Source: Prochlorothrix hollandica PCC 9006 = CALU 1027
GTDB lineage: Bacteria > Cyanobacteriota > Cyanobacteriia > Prochlorotrichales > Prochlorotrichaceae
NCBI RefSeq assembly: GCF_000332315.1
Contig: NZ_KB235939.1
Location: 41,294 to 79,540, forward strand
DNA: 38,247 nt
Reading direction: 5' to 3'
A program made the position numbers and the translations under genes. Positions 20,801-38,112 of this stretch are shown here, piece by piece. Each line of letters begins with the position of its first letter. The stretch's first letter is position 1. Below the pieces are notes generated by a model. The model ran no database searches. It saw only the letters and a program-made list of their open reading frames with translations, and was not told the DNA's origin.

Positions 20801-20932
20801 GGGATCCGGACTACCTGGCCCAGGTATCGATAGGGTTGACTGAAGGTTAACGGCGATCGTCCTGGGTTCGGGATTCCCCCCCCAGCCCTAGCCTTTGCTT
20901 TGCATTCCCGTCCTCATCAGATCGCGATAGCC

Positions 20933-23900
20933 ATGGGTCTTGGTCAACTGCCCTGTTCCACCACCACCGTCCCTCAGGTTTTGGCCCTGGGTTCCTGCCT
21001 TGGGTTCTGGGGGGCGAGTCTCCTGGGGTTTGTGCCGGGGGCGATCGCCCAAATCAGTCCCGACAGCAGCCTGTCCCCCTCTGGCAACAGTCAGGTCACC
21101 CGCACGGGCAACCTGTGGCACATCAGCGCTGGCACCACTGCCGGAGACAACCTCTTCCATAGCTTTGCCACCTTTCAACTGGGCACGGGCGAAACAGCCT
21201 ACTTTGACAATGCCCCGTCCATTGCAACGATCTTTGCCCGGGTCACGGGGGGCAGTCCCGCTATCCTCAACGGCATTCTCCAGGCCAACGGCAGCGCCAA
21301 TCTTTTTTTGCTCAGTCCCCAGGGTATCCAGGTGGGCAGCGGTTCCCGGCTCCAACTGGGGGGTTCCTTTGTGGCCAGCACCGCCGATCGCCTCCTCTTC
21401 CAGTCCGGTGAATTCAATGCCAGCCAGCCCAATCTGCCCCCCCTCCTCACCATTAATCCCCCCCTGGGCTTCCAGTTCGATCGTCCCGCCCGTCCCATTA
21501 GTCTCCAGGACAGTGGCCATGGTTTAAGCAGTAGTAGTTCCGTTGCGCCCCTGGTCTTGGGCAGTGCCCCTGCCAACGCGCTCCAAGTGGCTCCTGGCCA
21601 GTCCCTGGTGCTGTTGGGGGGGGCGCTGGAGTTGGACGGCGCGGGCTTGGTGGCCTATGGGGGTCAGGTCAGCTTGGGATCCGTGAATCAGGGGTTTGTG
21701 GGGTTGAACTGGGGGCAATCCGATCGGGGCACTCCCGCCTTGACCTTGGACTATGGCCAAACCCAGGGCTTCCAGTCCCTCCGCCTCCGCCGCCAAGCCC
21801 TGGTGGATGTTAGTGCTTTGCCCCCTGCCTTCGGCGGTGTGCGGGCCGGATCGGTGCAGGTACAGGCCCAGGATCTGACCCTGGAGGATGGCTCCGTAAT
21901 CATGGGTCAAAACTTTGGTCCCCAGGCGGCGGGTACCCTGGCGGTGCGGGCGGCGGGGAATATTACCTTGACGGGCACGGATCCGCGATCGGGGGGACTG
22001 CTGCGATCGATGGTGCTGACCAACAGCCTGGGGGGGGATGCCGCTGCCATCACCGTGACTGCCGGGGGCGACATCATGGTGGACGATGGGGGAGCCATTG
22101 CCAGCATTAACTTTGGCCCTGGGGCGGGGGGCGATGTGACGGTGCGAGGGCGTTCCCTGACCATTGTCGGGATCTCCGCCTTCACCAGCGCCACCAATAG
22201 TGCTGTGGCCTCCCAGAGCGTCGGAGCCTTGGGACGGGCGGGCAATCTTAATGTGGCGGTCGATCGCCTGCGCTTAGAAGACGGGGGGCTGTTGGTGTCC
22301 AACACCTTTGGACCAGGGCAGGGGGGGACTATTACCGTGGCGGCGAGGGAATCGGTCATTCTCCAGGGCTTTGATCCCAGTTCTCGCCTCAGCAGTATCA
22401 TCACACCGGCCACCTTTGGCAGTGGTAATGCGGGATCTGTGATTCTCACCACCCCCAGCTTGCGGCTGATTAATGGGGGCCAAATTAGTACGGCCACCTT
22501 TGCCGGGGGGGATGCGGGCAATGTCAGTATCACCGCCCAAGATATTGTGCTGGAGGGCAATGACACAGGCTTGCTCAACCAAACCCTCATTGGTTCTGAT
22601 GGGGGAATTCTGTCCCTAGAGTCCCAGATTCGCTTTGGGGTGACGGCTCCCAGCGGGCGATCGGGGGATGTGCAGATTAGCAGCCAAACCCTAACCTTGC
22701 GCAACAATGCCCTGCTTAGTGTCAATAATCTGGGTAGTGGTGCTGGGGGCAATCTGAGGCTCTTTTTACAGACTCTCCTCCTGGATACCCAGGCCCAAAT
22801 CACCGCCGCTGCCCAGTCCGGGGAAGGGGGCAATATTGTGGTGGAGGCCGATCGAGCCATCTTTCTCCGCCAAGGCAGTCGCATCACCGCCGAAGCGGGC
22901 GGCAGCGGCAATGGGGGGAATATAACCCTGACCACGCCCCTGTTAGTGGCAATTCCCAGGGAAAATAGCGATATCATTGCCAATGCCTTTGAGGGCAATG
23001 GGGGCAATATTCAGATCAACGCCCAGGCCATTTTGGGGTTGGATGCGCGACCAAACCTGACTCCCCGCAGCGACATCACCGCCAGTTCCCAGTTGGGGCT
23101 GTCGGGTACGGTTCGGTTTAATGGTCCCGAAGCGGATGTTAGTTCTGGGTTGGCGGACTTGCCGATTCAGGTGGCGGATGGGGGGCAGCCGGTGGCCGAT
23201 CGCTGTGCCGCCGCCACGGGTAACCAATTCACCGCCACGGGGCGGGGGGGACTGCCGGAAAACCCCCTGGATCCCCTCCGTAGCCCCAGCCTCTGGATCC
23301 CTGCCCCCGTCACCCCCCCTGCCCTGATCCCAGAAGCCCAAGGTTGGCACCGGGATCCCCAGGGACGGATCTTATTAGCCAAAACTTCCTTGGCCAAAAC
23401 TTCCTTGGCCAAAACTCCCTTGGCCGCAACTCCCGTCACCCCAGCCGCCCCCGATCCCCAATCCCTCGGATCCCTGGTCAATCGGGTACAAGATCTGCGG
23501 CAGGGGGGCTATTATCGCCAAGCTCTGGCGTTATTGCAGCCCTGGGTTGAGGCTAGGGAATCCGGCGTTGTTCAACCCGACAGCCCCCAACAGGTTATCG
23601 CCCTCCGCAGTCTGGGGGTTTTGCGCCATCTGACGGGGGATCTCCTGGGGGCGAAGCCGTTGCTGGAAGCCAGTTGGGCCATGGCCGATCGCCTGAACTT
23701 GCCCCTGGAACAAAGCCAAACCCTCCTGGAGTTGGGGAATTTGGCGCGGGACTTTGCCCTAGCCGATGTGGCCCAAGGCTATTACCGCGATGCCGCCACC
23801 CTAGCCACAGGTGTAGGGTTTGACCTGGCTGTTAACCCGGCTGTTAACCCGGCTGTTAACCCGGCTGTTAACCCAACGATTAACCCAACGATTAACCCAA

Positions 23901-25822
23901 CGATTAACCCACCTGAAGCCCTGGATCTCCCGTCCCACCCCACCGCTGCCCTGGTGTCTGTCCAAGCCCGCCTCAATAGCATCAGCCTTGCCTTAGATCA
24001 ACAACAGCCCCAGGTGGCTGCTGCCCTGGTTCCTGCTGTCGTCGCCGATCTGGCCCTGATTCCCCCCCAACGGGCCACCGTCTACGCCGTCCTTAACCTG
24101 GTCGCTAGCCTAGGACGGATCCCCGCCCCCCTCCTGTCCCCCGCCGTCCCAGAACCCACCGCCCTCTTAGCCCAGACGGCCCAACAGGCAGAAACCCTGG
24201 ACGATCGCCTTGCCTTAGCCCAGGTTTGGCTACACCAGGGTCAGCAAGCCCTAGAGGCCGATCGATCCGCCGATGCCCTTGCCCACAGCCGCCGGAGCCT
24301 TGCCCTGGCCCAAGAACTCCAGGAATCGGATCTGGTGGCCCGTGCCGCCACCCAATTGGGGCAAATTTACCTGCACCAGGGCCAACCCAGTGCCGCTCTG
24401 CCCGCCTATCAGGTGGCCTATGCTGCCCTGCAAACCCTCCGTAGTGATCTGGTGGCCACAAACCCAGATCTGCAATTCTCCTTCCGGGACAGCGTAGAGC
24501 CGGTGTATCGGCAATTGGTGAGCCTGCTCCTGACCGTAGCGCCTGCGGCTAGTGCCAGCGCCTCTAGTGCTGCCAGTGCCATCCCCGACCCTAGCCACCA
24601 GGCCCATCTGCGCCAAGCCCTGGCAGTGATTGAAAGCTTGCAACTGGCGGAACTGGATAATTTCTTCCGGGATGCCTGCCTCACGGCCCGTCCCCAGGAC
24701 ATTAATCAAATCGATCCCCAGGCGACGGTTATTTATCCCATTCTCTTGGACGATCGCCTAGAGGTCATCGTGGCCTCTGCCGATCGCCCCCTCCAGCACT
24801 ACAGCACCCCTGTTCCCCGCCCCCGGGTGGAAGCCGTCTTACAAGAGCTATACTCCTCCCTCCATCCGGGCTATCCCCAGAATCTCCACCGCCAAGTTGC
24901 CCAACAGGTCTATGACTGGTTGATTCGCCCTGCGGAAGGGGAACTGGCCCAGGCCCAACCGGAAACCTTGGTCTTTGTTCTTGATGGTGTCCTGAAAAAT
25001 ATTCCCATGGCTGTACTACAGGATGGGGAGCAGTATCTAGTCGAACGTTATGCCCTCGCCCTCAGTCCTGGTCTCCAACTCTTGCCTCCCCGTCGTCCCG
25101 ATCGCCATGGCCAGGTCCTCGCAGCAGGTCTCACGGAAGCCCGCCAAGGGTTCTCCCCCCTGCCCGCCGTGGCCCAGGAACTCCAGGATATTACGGCCCA
25201 TCGATCGGGCACCATTCTCCTCAATGAACAATTTACCCCCTTGACCCTGGCCCAAACCCTGAGCCAGAATCAAGTTTCCATTCTCCATCTGGCCACCCAT
25301 GCCCAGTTCAGTGCCGACCCTGACCAAACCTTTTTGGTGACTTGGGACGATACCCTAGGGCTGGGGGATCTCGGTCGCTTGCTCCAACCCAGCCAGTTGG
25401 GATTAGCAGAACCCATCGATCTGCTGGTGATGAGTGCTTGTCAAACTGCCAAGGGCGATCGTCGCGCCGGGTTAGGCTTAGCGGGGTTTGCCCTGCGATC
25501 TGGTGCCCGCAGTACCGTGGCCAGTCTTTGGTCCGTCAGTGACAGCTCCACCGCCCGCTTGATGGGGGAATTCTATCAACACCTGAATGGTCAGGATCTG
25601 CCCGTGGGTGCCCACGGTTCTAGGATTGCTCCCCCTAACTCCAACGCCCCTAACTCCAGCGCCCCTAAACCCAGCGCCCCTAACTCCAGCGCCCTTCAAT
25701 CCAGCGCCCCTAAACCCAATAAAGCCGAAGCCCTGCGTCAGGCTCAATTGGCCCTTCTCCACGACCCCCAATATAGCCATCCCTACTTTTGGGCCGCGTT
25801 TGTTTTGGTGGGGAACTGGTAA
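20933..25822 (+). CDS. secreted TpsA-type (haemagglutination domain) protein with TPR and C-terminal CHAT protease domain
   Basis: This giant exoprotein has about 1629 residues. The ATG at 20933 gives a signal peptide ending near GAIAQ; an earlier in-frame TTG at 20900 is less likely. The TPS secretion domain follows (GDNLFHSFATFQLGTGETAYFDN-type sequence and NLFLLSPQGIQVG), then a Gly/Asn-rich beta-helix to about residue 740, closed by the conserved ADRCAAATGNQF and GRGGLPENP block. A linker and TPR-like helices span about residues 850-1240. The CHAT caspase-like domain ends the protein, with His1456 (ILHLATHAQF) and Cys1503 (LLVMSACQTA). Three tandem low-complexity inserts are present: KTSLA, NPAV/NPTI and APNSS units of 15, 12 and 15 bp. 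A DUF928 gene follows 61 bp downstream. No TpsB outer-membrane partner is in the window. The protease substrate is unknown. Confidence 0.9.
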   Translation: MGLGQLPCSTTTVPQVLALGSCLGFWGASLLGFVPGAIAQISPDSSLSPSGNSQVTRTGNLWHISAGTTAGDNLFHSFATFQLGTGETAYFDNAPSIATIFARVTGGSPAILNGILQANGSANLFLLSPQGIQVGSGSRLQLGGSFVASTADRLLFQSGEFNASQPNLPPLLTINPPLGFQFDRPARPISLQDSGHGLSSSSSVAPLVLGSAPANALQVAPGQSLVLLGGALELDGAGLVAYGGQVSLGSVNQGFVGLNWGQSDRGTPALTLDYGQTQGFQSLRLRRQALVDVSALPPAFGGVRAGSVQVQAQDLTLEDGSVIMGQNFGPQAAGTLAVRAAGNITLTGTDPRSGGLLRSMVLTNSLGGDAAAITVTAGGDIMVDDGGAIASINFGPGAGGDVTVRGRSLTIVGISAFTSATNSAVASQSVGALGRAGNLNVAVDRLRLEDGGLLVSNTFGPGQGGTITVAARESVILQGFDPSSRLSSIITPATFGSGNAGSVILTTPSLRLINGGQISTATFAGGDAGNVSITAQDIVLEGNDTGLLNQTLIGSDGGILSLESQIRFGVTAPSGRSGDVQISSQTLTLRNNALLSVNNLGSGAGGNLRLFLQTLLLDTQAQITAAAQSGEGGNIVVEADRAIFLRQGSRITAEAGGSGNGGNITLTTPLLVAIPRENSDIIANAFEGNGGNIQINAQAILGLDARPNLTPRSDITASSQLGLSGTVRFNGPEADVSSGLADLPIQVADGGQPVADRCAAATGNQFTATGRGGLPENPLDPLRSPSLWIPAPVTPPALIPEAQGWHRDPQGRILLAKTSLAKTSLAKTPLAATPVTPAAPDPQSLGSLVNRVQDLRQGGYYRQALALLQPWVEARESGVVQPDSPQQVIALRSLGVLRHLTGDLLGAKPLLEASWAMADRLNLPLEQSQTLLELGNLARDFALADVAQGYYRDAATLATGVGFDLAVNPAVNPAVNPAVNPTINPTINPTINPPEALDLPSHPTAALVSVQARLNSISLALDQQQPQVAAALVPAVVADLALIPPQRATVYAVLNLVASLGRIPAPLLSPAVPEPTALLAQTAQQAETLDDRLALAQVWLHQGQQALEADRSADALAHSRRSLALAQELQESDLVARAATQLGQIYLHQGQPSAALPAYQVAYAALQTLRSDLVATNPDLQFSFRDSVEPVYRQLVSLLLTVAPAASASASSAASAIPDPSHQAHLRQALAVIESLQLAELDNFFRDACLTARPQDINQIDPQATVIYPILLDDRLEVIVASADRPLQHYSTPVPRPRVEAVLQELYSSLHPGYPQNLHRQVAQQVYDWLIRPAEGELAQAQPETLVFVLDGVLKNIPMAVLQDGEQYLVERYALALSPGLQLLPPRRPDRHGQVLAAGLTEARQGFSPLPAVAQELQDITAHRSGTILLNEQFTPLTLAQTLSQNQVSILHLATHAQFSADPDQTFLVTWDDTLGLGDLGRLLQPSQLGLAEPIDLLVMSACQTAKGDRRAGLGLAGFALRSGARSTVASLWSVSDSSTARLMGEFYQHLNGQDLPVGAHGSRIAPPNSNAPNSSAPKPSAPNSSALQSSAPKPNKAEALRQAQLALLHDPQYSHPYFWAAFVLVGNW

Positions 25823-25883
25823 TCGTCAGGTTGTATCTACCCTTAGCAGAACCCACCGGAAGCTTGTAGACACTCGTCACACC

Positions 25884-27023
25884 ATGTTTAAGTCTTTGTC
25901 CCTTCACCCTACTGCCCCTTCCCTGGCTACCCCTGCAATGGGTTCCACCCCAACCCTTCAGGCTTGGGGCTGGATCTCTGCCAGCCTGATCCCTTCCAGT
26001 CTGATCTCTGCCAGCCTGATCTCTGCCACCTTCACTGTCTGTACCCTTAGCCCAGCCCAAGCCCTGTCCTTCAAACCCCCCGCTGAGTCTGTGCCTGCCA
26101 ATAGCTTGGGAGGAGGTGTGCGGGGCAAGGTTCAGTTTACGGCCCCCAGTAGTGCCGCTCCTGTCAATAGCTTAGGGGGCGGAGTCCGAGGCCGTGTCCA
26201 GTTTGCCGTGCCAGCCCAAGCCACTCCCAGCGACAGTTTAGGGGGTGGCACCCGTGGCGGTGTTCGCTTCACCGTGCCCGCCCAAGCAACACCCAGCGAC
26301 AGTTTAGGGGGGGGTACCCGTGGCGGTGTTCGCTTCACGGTTCCGGCTCAGGCAGCCCCCAGGGCCAGTGTCAGTGGCGGCAGTCGAGCAGCAGACAGGG
26401 TCGCTGACTCGTTGGCTGTTACCCCTAACTCCGCGACGACGATCGCCGCCCTTGATCCGCATTTTGAGACCCTCTCCCGTCCCCTGGAACCCATTGCTCT
26501 GGTGCCCGATCGCCAATACCTGAGCTATACCGTCAGTCCTCGCCCCACCTTTTTTGTCTATATGCCCCCCATGGCCACCGATGGGGTTTTCTTCAGCATC
26601 CAAGCTGAAAACGGTGAACCCTTGTACCACACCCTGCTTCAGGTGCCCGCAGACGGGGGTATTGTGCGCTTTACCTTGCCAGACGATGCCCCTGCCCTCG
26701 CCCTGAACGAAAACTATGCCTGGTTTTTTGTGCCGATCGAAGCGGGGGGAACGCTGCGCCCTGACAGCCCCGGCACCGTGGCTTGGATTAAACGGGTGGA
26801 ATCTCCCCTAACTGCCTCGGATCTCGCCTCCTCTGTCCCAACCTTGGAGCAGGTGACCCAACTGGCCCAGGCGGGTATCTGGTACGACACCCTCGCTGCC
26901 TTGGATCAGGGACTGCAAGGGGAACCGGGCACCTCTGAACCCCTGGAGTCAGACCTGTGGGCTTCGGAATGGGACGATCTCTTGCAGTCTGTGGGCTTGG
27001 AAGCCGTCCTGTATCAACCTTAG
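25884..27023 (+). CDS. DUF928 family exported protein with N-terminal glycine-rich repeats
   Basis: This cyanobacterial protein of unknown function, about 379 residues, starts at the ATG at 25884 (MFKSLSLHP). It has a leader with SLISASLISATFTVCTLSPAQA that looks like a signal peptide. Then come four repeats of about 22 residues (SLGGGVRGKVQFTAP, SLGGGTRGGVRFTVPAQA). The DUF928 domain occupies about residues 190-330: YTVSPRPTFFVYMPP, GEPLYHTLLQVPADGGIVRF and ENYAWFFVPIE. It ends with a short helical part (TLEQVTQLAQAGIWYDTLAAL). The gene lies 61 bp behind the TpsA-CHAT gene, a pairing seen in other cyanobacteria. This suggests they act together at the cell surface, but no mechanism is known. 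Confidence 0.85.
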   Translation: MFKSLSLHPTAPSLATPAMGSTPTLQAWGWISASLIPSSLISASLISATFTVCTLSPAQALSFKPPAESVPANSLGGGVRGKVQFTAPSSAAPVNSLGGGVRGRVQFAVPAQATPSDSLGGGTRGGVRFTVPAQATPSDSLGGGTRGGVRFTVPAQAAPRASVSGGSRAADRVADSLAVTPNSATTIAALDPHFETLSRPLEPIALVPDRQYLSYTVSPRPTFFVYMPPMATDGVFFSIQAENGEPLYHTLLQVPADGGIVRFTLPDDAPALALNENYAWFFVPIEAGGTLRPDSPGTVAWIKRVESPLTASDLASSVPTLEQVTQLAQAGIWYDTLAALDQGLQGEPGTSEPLESDLWASEWDDLLQSVGLEAVLYQP

Positions 27024-37524: not shown

Positions 37525-38112
37525 ATGAACTTAAAAGAACAAGAGATCGATGTCAAAGACATTGACCATTTAGGAATAATAGCAGGAATCATGGACGAAA
37601 TGGATTTGGTTGGCTTAATCGACCAGCTAATTCCTCCCCATTCCCTCGAAAAGATTAGTGTTGGCATTGCCGTCAAAGCAATGGTCTTAAATTGCATGGG
37701 CTTTCTGACCAGCCCATTTTATCTATTCTCTCAATTTTTCGAGGGGAAAGCCGTTGAACACTTACTCGGAGAAGGAATTAAAGCAGAACACCTCAATGAG
37801 AGTCGTTTAGGGAGAACCTTAGATGAAATCTTTAAGTATGGAGTGAGCCAATTATTTGTCCAAATCGTGATGGTAGCCGTAAAAGTGTTTGGGGTTGAAA
37901 TCACAAGCGGCCATGCCGACACCACCAGCTTATCCGTAGAAGGGGAATACAAGGACGGAGTTTGCGAGAAGCAGAAGAGGAAGAGGGGAAGAGGGGGAAA
38001 AAGGGGAGAAAGGGACAAAGCGGAAGAAGACGATGGTCTAAAACCCATTAAAGTCAAGGAGGGCTATTCACGAGACCATCGACCCGACTTAAAGCAAATC
38101 ATGATAACATAG
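37525..38112 (+). pseudogene. truncated IS1634-type transposase (DUF4277 N-terminal part)
   Basis: The 195-residue product matches in style the N-terminus of IS1634-family transposases (about 530-560 residues). The blocks are IDHLGIIAGIMDEMDLVGLI, KAMVLNCMGFLTSPFYLFSQ, FFEGKAVEHLLGEGI and HADTTSLSVEGEY (first catalytic Asp region), then GYSRDHRPDLKQ. The frame then passes into IMIT and stops, so the second and third catalytic residues are missing. The gene is more AT-rich than its neighbours, as expected for acquired DNA. AAGGGGTTAAGAG precedes the ATG. A family B repeat begins 36 bp behind the stop, so the right end of the insertion sequence has been lost. Confidence 0.85.

What the first reader, a model, noticed from the sequence alone, without database searches (positions are those of the whole stretch)
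20933..27023. Secreted TpsA-TPR-CHAT giant paired with a DUF928 protein
A haemagglutination (two-partner secretion) domain, beta-helix, TPR-like region and a CHAT protease with intact His and Cys are fused in one chain, followed by an exported DUF928 protein. CHAT proteases are usually intracellular effectors; an exported one with a bacterial adhesin head could act on surface or neighbour-cell proteins. DUF928 could be its substrate, partner or inhibitor. The four 22-residue repeats at the DUF928 N-terminus might be the interaction sites.
Basis: partly seen in the sequence, partly recalled or inferred. Interest (0 to 1): 0.62.

Follow-up and report, generated by a model that had tools for sequence, protein, structure and literature searches.

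The report
Adhesin fused to caspase-like secreted protease
A cyanobacterial gene joins a surface adhesin to a caspase-like protease that is normally its separate neighbour, beside a repeat-bearing secreted partner protein, and many cyanobacteria keep these genes together with a membrane receptor gene, which hints at an unstudied protease-based signalling system in the cell envelope.

Summary
ORF 20900-25822 carries a TPS domain, TPRs and a CHAT protease with His1467 and Cys1514; a DUF928 gene with four 22-residue repeats follows. In 80 cyanobacterial loci with the closest CHAT relatives the protease is usually a separate gene with its own signal-like start (76 of 80), recurrently grouped with TpsB, TpsA, DUF928 and a CHASE2 receptor gene. 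The window protein is a complete TpsA joined to that TPR-CHAT. DUF928 genes are enriched near CHASE2 (24 of 40, 1.05 expected) and CHAT (15 of 40, 2.9 expected). The 22-residue unit multiplies a Gly-rich segment whose Arg is present in all 62 aligned DUF928s, and is under purifying selection. Searching by the repeat alone, 22 of 23 other sites lie within two genes of CHAT. Models resemble Csx29/separase (CHAT) and MtxA (DUF928); mtxA too is followed by a CHASE2 gene. Best reading: an envelope protease-signalling module in which CHAT acts on the disordered DUF928 repeats and DUF928 reports to CHASE2. Linkage is shown; cleavage and signalling are inferred. The window's DUF928 has no CHASE2 neighbour.

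The parts
20933..25822 (+). Fused TpsA-TPR-CHAT gene (ATG 20933; ORF open from TTG 20900; residue numbers counted from 20900)
20933..21049 (+). Signal-peptide-like N-terminus ending ...VPGAIA/Q
   Evidence: read from sequence; no signal-peptide program was run
21047..21823 (+). TPS domain PF05860 (residues 50-308); the NPXG position reads SPQG
   Evidence: TIGR01901 hit; sequence
23330..23386 (+). TpsA C-terminal tail motif (PEAQGWHRDPQGRILL); unfused TpsA proteins end shortly after this motif, so the fusion joint lies just downstream
23450..24664 (+). TPR solenoid (residues about 851-1255)
24893..25819 (+). CHAT protease domain (residues 1332-1640); His1467 at 25298-25300, Cys1514 at 25439-25441
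25617..25733 (+). 15-nt tandem repeat coding a low-complexity insert in a CHAT loop (low confidence in the model)
25884..27023 (+). DUF928 gene (start 25884 or 25938; the 25587 ATG lies inside the CHAT gene)
25938..26063 (+). Signal-peptide-like segment ending SPAQA
   Evidence: read from sequence
26094..26357 (+). Four 22-residue units PxxSxGGGxRGxVxFxxPxxxx
26493..27020 (+). DUF928 core: beta-sandwich plus helices, MtxA-like in the model

Best explanation
The window carries a fused version of a recurrent cyanobacterial gene cluster: TpsB - TpsA - secreted TPR-CHAT protease - DUF928 - CHASE2 receptor. Here TpsA and TPR-CHAT have become one chain. Proposed working: the TPS head and a TpsB place the beta-helix at the surface, while the C-terminal TPR-CHAT, which replaces the cysteine-bearing tail of ordinary TpsA proteins, stays on the periplasmic side. 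An event sensed by TpsA or the TPRs activates CHAT. CHAT then acts on the disordered GGGxRG units at the N-terminus of the exported DUF928 protein, by cutting or docking, and the MtxA-like DUF928 core reports to a CHASE2 inner-membrane receptor. Shown here: the anatomy, gene linkage, conservation of and selection on the repeats, and predicted folds. Inferred: location, activation, cleavage, a cleavage site after Arg, and signalling. In this genome the CHASE2 step would have to act in trans.
For: Closest relatives of the TPR-CHAT part: 80 loci, TPS gene in 42, DUF928 in 35, TpsB in 16; at 70% clustering 24, 21 and 6 of 44. DUF928 is the next ORF after CHAT in 27 of 75 loci with sequence there; a same-strand TPS is the ORF before in 28 of 70. 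CHASE2 in 40 of 80; CHAT>DUF928>CHASE2 on one strand in 18 of 80. From the DUF928 side (40 neighbourhoods, 12 genomes): CHASE2 24 (1.05 expected), CHAT 15 (2.9 expected). From the repeat side (search by repeat profile only, 386 genomes): 23 sites besides the window; CHAT directly upstream in 18, within two genes in 4 more, absent in 1; CHASE2 directly next in 20. The window CHAT lies in a clade of 17, of which 14 are paired with repeat-DUF928. Independent TPS-CHAT fusion followed by DUF928: L216. Fold: Csx29/TPR-CHAT Z 31 over 570 residues, separase 5fby Z 24.7. DUF928 core best match MtxA 4z29 Z 9.1; mtxA is followed by a CHASE2-cyclase gene (PMC4439547, passages). Repeat region low-confidence in the model, likely disordered. 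61 of 62 unfused TpsAs with the GRGGLP motif have a Cys before it and one in the tail; the fusion keeps only the first; HMW1/HxuA C-termini stay periplasmic (PMC5422565, passages).
Against: No cleavage, binding or localisation datum exists. 25 of 40 DUF928 neighbourhoods have no CHAT, and the motif Arg is conserved also in DUF928s without a CHAT nearby (16 of 16), so the motif cannot serve a neighbouring CHAT alone. Under a looser repeat pattern, 2 of 5 multi-copy DUF928s in that same set had no CHAT in the fetched stretch. No CHASE2 gene adjoins the window's DUF928, and none of the four other own-genome DUF928 loci shows CHASE2 in the fetched regions. Neither of the two TpsB genes found lies beside a TpsA. 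The MtxA match (Z 9.1) stands only modestly above an Ig/FnIII crowd at 7.5 and below, and the DUF928 profile gave no sequence hit to MtxA in the PDB. Csx29 shows no strict sequence requirement (PMC10028731, passages), so Arg specificity cannot be read across.
Confidence: 0.42

Rival explanations
1. DUF928 is a docking adaptor or inhibitor: the GGGxRG units are multivalent binding sites for the TPR/CHAT or for TpsA, and are not cut.
For: Conservation spans the whole unit (P1, S/T4, V/I13, F15, P18) and not only the residues around Arg; TPR solenoids commonly bind extended peptides (general knowledge); copy number varies widely, up to 10 in L099.
Against: Does not by itself explain why a flexible Gly run is followed by Arg-Gly, a protease-accessible layout (inference); positions 7, 10 and 11 were fixed by the search pattern, so their strictness is partly built in.
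Confidence: 0.3
2. CHAT is a maturation or release protease for its TpsA partner, trimming the TpsA C-terminus; DUF928 is an accessory.
For: TPS is the ORF directly before CHAT in 28 of 70 loci; adhesin-processing proteases are known for other TPS proteins (general knowledge).
Against: In the fusion the protease is covalently joined to the TpsA whose tail it would trim; repeat-DUF928 tracks the CHAT clade and its presence predicts CHAT.
Confidence: 0.15
3. A CdiA-like weapon: the CHAT tail is delivered to or acts on neighbour cells, with DUF928 as immunity protein (near the first reader's view).
For: Overall layout (TPS head, long middle, C-terminal enzyme, small downstream gene) resembles CdiA (PMC5422565, passages).
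Against: The C-terminal part is not a variable toxin: the same TPR-CHAT is conserved as a separate exported protein in many genomes; DUF928 itself looks exported and is linked more often to CHASE2 than to CHAT.
Confidence: 0.05
4. Chance neighbours: TPS, CHAT and DUF928 families are simply numerous in large cyanobacterial genomes.
For: The own genome has 11 TPS, about 14 CHAT and 5 DUF928 places; four of its five DUF928s are not beside a CHAT gene.
Against: Enrichment over copy-number expectation and 22 of 23 repeat-DUF928 sites near CHAT.
Confidence: 0.02

Closest known systems
Csx29 (TPR-CHAT) with Csx30, the Craspase protease of type III-E CRISPR
   Same: TPR solenoid plus CHAT, model Z 31 over 570 residues; the known substrate is encoded in the same locus (PMC10028731, passages)
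   Different: Csx29 acts inside the cell with Cas7-11 and target RNA; this one looks exported, is joined to an adhesin, and belongs to a DUF928/CHASE2 neighbourhood
Separase
   Same: Protease domain fold, Z 24.7 over 319 residues (5fby); separases cut after Arg (PMC4626109, passages)
   Different: Eukaryotic; no profile match by sequence to separase in the PDB; specificity here unknown
MtxA of magnetotactic bacteria
   Same: Best fold match of the DUF928 core (4z29, Z 9.1, 149 residues); signal peptide; gene followed by a CHASE2-adenylate cyclase gene (PMC4439547, passages)
   Different: No repeats or CHAT partner mentioned in the passages read; no sequence match found
CdiA and FHA-type TpsA adhesins
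   Same: TPS domain and overall layout
   Different: C-terminal part is a conserved protease and not a variable toxin
DdvA transmembrane anti-sigma factor
   Same: Model matches DdvA structures at Z about 21 over 504-530 residues; a membrane-linked TPR-CHAT-like relative
   Different: Known here only from the PDB title; no paper naming DdvA was among those listed

Membership tests
Two-partner secretion TpsA | N-terminal TPS domain | tested here: met
   PF05860 E 1.4e-44; TIGR01901 71.4 bits, cut-off 29.1
Two-partner secretion TpsA | Cognate TpsB transporter | tested here: inconclusive
   Two ShlB genes in the genome, neither beside a TpsA in the fetched regions
Two-partner secretion TpsA | Secretion to the surface | not testable with these tools
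   needs a fractionation experiment
CHAT peptidase (PF12770) | CHAT domain above cut-off and caspase-like fold | tested here: met
   191.4 bits, cut-off 24; fold match to Csx29 and separase
CHAT peptidase (PF12770) | Catalytic His and Cys | tested here: met
   present in the window; conserved in 91 of 92 aligned rows, the exception being a distant own-genome paralogue that appears misaligned there
CHAT peptidase (PF12770) | Proteolytic activity | not testable with these tools
   needs enzyme assay
Csx29 / Craspase | Partner Cas7-11 in the locus | not tested
   PADLOC gave no hit for the giant or DUF928 and two weak ones for neighbours, but the whole window was not typed for Cas7-11
DUF928 (PF06051) | Profile match above cut-off | tested here: met
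   120.3 bits, cut-off 26
DUF928 (PF06051) | N-terminal GGGxRG-type unit and Cys pair | tested here: inconclusive
   Unit present four times; motif Arg in 62 of 62 aligned rows. The Cys pair (48 rows both, 13 neither, 1 one) is absent here, as in the other repeat-bearing rows of that alignment
MtxA-like domain | Shared fold over the whole domain | tested here: inconclusive
   Z 9.1, rmsd 4.3 over 149 residues; next rows 7.5
CDI toxin system | Variable C-terminal toxin with adjacent immunity gene | tested here: not met
   The C-terminal part is a conserved TPR-CHAT shared with separate genes

The most novel reading that the evidence does not exclude
The DUF928 repeat array is a tandem peptide precursor in the cell envelope. 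The exported CHAT protease cuts after the Arg of each GGGxR-G unit, releasing near-identical 22-residue peptides or freeing the DUF928 core, and a CHASE2 receptor reads the product: a bacterial outside-to-inside signalling route built from an adhesin, a caspase-like protease and a repeat precursor. The mature N-terminus that signal peptidase would leave starts in the same register as the units (LSFKPP against KVQFTAP, sequence).
Probability: 0.2. Interest if true: 0.88.

Novelty: new variant of a known kind. Interest (0 to 1): 0.66.

Why it matters
Only one paper in the library searched names DUF928, and the cyanobacterial genomes counted here carry 5 to 42 CHAT places each with no role assigned in anything I found. 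A conserved cluster that joins a surface adhesin, an exported caspase-like protease, a repeat-bearing DUF928 and a CHASE2 receptor gives each a candidate function that can be tested with two purified proteins. The fusion shows that adhesin and protease can exist as one chain. The DUF928-CHASE2 link, echoed by mtxA, suggests a general ligand or co-receptor for CHASE2 sensors.

Tried and rejected
Stop-codon read-through between separate tpsA and CHAT genes: 27 junctions fall 9, 10 and 8 in the three phases, so no sign of it. The open_frame figures suggested fusions in G119 and G128; the fetched DNA shows separate genes (L214, L215), and only L216 (G123) was truly fused. The same figure was misleading for own-genome L022 and L023.

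PDB searches by sequence with the CHAT part, the CHAT profile, the catalytic stretch and the DUF928 profile gave only chance-level hits; the TPR-CHAT profile hit only TPR proteins among the rows shown. So no residue-level alignment to separase was obtained. The idea that the conserved Asp of WxVxD (114 of 121 CHATs) forms an Arg-binding pocket as in separase rests on recall and is not tested. Defence role: PADLOC gave nothing for the giant or DUF928. Promoter/terminator scan: no more sites than shuffles.

Selections and dropped rows. The 80 CHAT loci are the best 80 of 175. The DUF928 sample of 40 neighbourhoods comes from rows listed for 12 complete or near-complete genomes; unlisted rows, and G060 and G113 (same genus as others), were left out. 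Expectations treat gene positions as random and ignore clustering. Alignment A1 holds 62 rows: the window plus 61 of 76 non-redundant DUF928s. A2 holds 49 rows: the window, 3 own paralogues and 45 of 57. A3 holds 30 and A4 9, chosen by hand. In one search L101, L103, L104 and L110 were left out as near-duplicates, and the unit pattern itself fixes positions 7, 10 and 11. The tree of 107 rows left out proteins under 700 aa among the 80 loci and used the quick method; some long branches meet, the window's among them. L255 has the same gene coordinates and contig length as L105, so the repeat-led set is not fully separate from the CHAT-led one. 'Signal-like' means a hydrophobic-window rule, met also by 195 of 614 other ORFs.

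Literature, by full-text search of one library: 'DUF928' 1 paper (PMC5587647, listing only); 'CHAT domain'+'hemagglutin'+'cyanobacteri' 0; 'two-partner secretion'+'cyanobacteri'+'CHAT domain' 0; 'CHASE2'+'CHAT domain' 0. Read as passages: PMC10028731, PMC4626109, PMC4439547, PMC5422565. All others: listing only.
Full report
What is there. ORF 20900-25822 (ATG at 20933) codes a chain with a TPS domain, a long middle part, TPR repeats and a CHAT domain; DUF928 follows. His1467 and Cys1514 are intact. The DUF928 ORF listed from 25587 starts inside the CHAT gene; 25884 or 25938 fits a signal peptide ending SPAQA (sequence). The repeats are four 66-nt copies whose differences are mostly synonymous: 31.3 of 54.3 synonymous sites against 20.7 of 143.7 nonsynonymous. 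A 15-nt minisatellite interrupts the CHAT match in a loop with low model confidence.

The giant is a gene fusion. In the same genome the nearest relatives of residues 850-1640 are three separate CHAT genes, two of them directly after a TpsA gene: L022 (87 nt apart) and L023 (18 nt apart). Unfused TpsA proteins end soon after a motif like QGWxxNxxGxVxLVA, often with a Cys; the window protein has the motif (PEAQGWHRDPQGRILL) and then runs on into the TPR part. Of 62 unfused TpsAs with the GRGGLP motif, 61 have a Cys before it and another in the tail; 22 others lack the motif; the window fusion keeps only the first Cys. A review reports that in HMW1 and HxuA the disulfide-bearing C-terminus stays in the periplasm and locks the protein in its TpsB (PMC5422565, passages). 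I infer that in the fusion the folded TPR-CHAT may take that anchoring place. Other TPS-CHAT fusions exist: L025 (own genome, different CHAT), L131 and L216; the L216 fusion is also followed by DUF928, without the strict multi-copy repeat.

The neighbourhood is conserved. With the TPR-CHAT part as query, 80 loci were kept. TPS, DUF928 and TpsB genes lie in 42, 35 and 16 of them (24, 21 and 6 of 44 clusters at 70%). A fifth family, CHASE2 proteins (CHASE2 plus SpoIIE by Pfam in L099), lies in 40 of 80, and CHAT>DUF928>CHASE2 on one strand in 18 of 80, seven with TPS in front. Starting from DUF928 instead (40 neighbourhoods, 12 genomes), CHASE2 is near 24, CHAT near 15, TPS near 12, TpsB near 5, and 13 have none of these; copy numbers predict 1.05 and 2.9 for CHASE2 and CHAT. 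So DUF928 is tied to CHASE2 even more than to CHAT.

The repeats belong to the partnership. Every aligned DUF928 (62 of 62) has the motif Arg in a Gly-rich N-terminal segment. The window subfamily multiplies a 22-residue unit of it: in the CHAT-led set 13 loci (three of them identical Nostoc sp. WHI copies) and the window show 2 to 10 copies by the strict pattern. Spacing is 22 in 92 of 143 intervals under a looser pattern, with 21 or 23 in 21 more. The CHAT tree puts the window in a clade of 17 with 14 repeat-DUF928 partners (the window counted), two without DUF928 (own L039, L100) and one cut by a contig end; the label needs 4 changes against 13.2 in shuffles. To avoid selecting by CHAT, I searched 386 genomes with the repeat profile alone: 22 genomes, 24 sites with the window. 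Of the other 23, CHAT is directly upstream in 18, within two genes in 4, and missing in 1 (L257); CHASE2 is directly next in 20. Many of these carry a second version of the unit (GGASRGNLFTP).

Folds. The TPR-CHAT model (mean pLDDT 84.8) is closest to Csx29/TPR-CHAT of Craspase (Z 31, 570 residues) and then to separase (Z 24.7, 319 residues, 16% identity). The DUF928 model has a low-confidence first 200 residues, repeats included, and a confident core of beta-sandwich plus helices. Its best match is the MtxA C-terminal domain (Z 9.1, 149 residues), ahead of Ig/FnIII-type domains at 7.5 and below. In magnetotactic bacteria mtxA is followed by a CHASE2-cyclase gene (PMC4439547, passages): a parallel found after the DUF928-CHASE2 count and independent of it. 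Most DUF928s have two cysteines that come and go together (48 both, 13 neither, 1 one), as expected of a disulfide in an exported protein; the repeat subfamily lacks both.

How it may work. Csx29 cuts a protein encoded beside it and so releases a signalling factor (PMC10028731, passages). By the same logic, and given that CHAT and DUF928 both look exported and are linked, I favour CHAT acting on the disordered DUF928 repeats, with the DUF928 core reporting to CHASE2. What is shown stops at linkage, conservation and predicted fold. Against it: the motif Arg is conserved also where no CHAT is near (16 of 16); 25 of 40 sampled DUF928s have no CHAT neighbour; the window pair has no CHASE2 beside it; and Csx29 itself has loose sequence needs. 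A docking role for the repeats is almost as likely.

Verdict. It is a five-gene envelope module, with two parts fused here, that the searches did not find described. The parts are known kinds; the combination is new as far as those searches reach.

Noticed in passing
L224:4934-9325 (G002): TpsA and TpsB fused in one 1463-aa ORF that overlaps the following CHAT start by 4 nt.
   Followed up: partly
L265, L267-L273: A second 22-residue-type repeat version (GGASRGNLFTP) at the N-terminus of DUF928s, also beside CHAT and CHASE2.
   Followed up: partly
window 25617-25733: 15-nt minisatellite inside the CHAT domain coding a Pro/Asn/Ser-rich insert.
   Followed up: no
L022:14360-14725, L023:2491-2886, L025:991-1533, L028:6231-6620: ORFs made of a recurring phrase like WDCRVVLDPKPTTSR, which looks like an interspersed DNA repeat family of this genome.
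   Followed up: no
L216, L217, L218: DUF928 genes near TPS and CHAT in differing orders, including two DUF928 copies in one locus.
   Followed up: no
window 37525-38112: DUF4277 protein, a family I recall as often belonging to transposases (domain hit).
   Followed up: no
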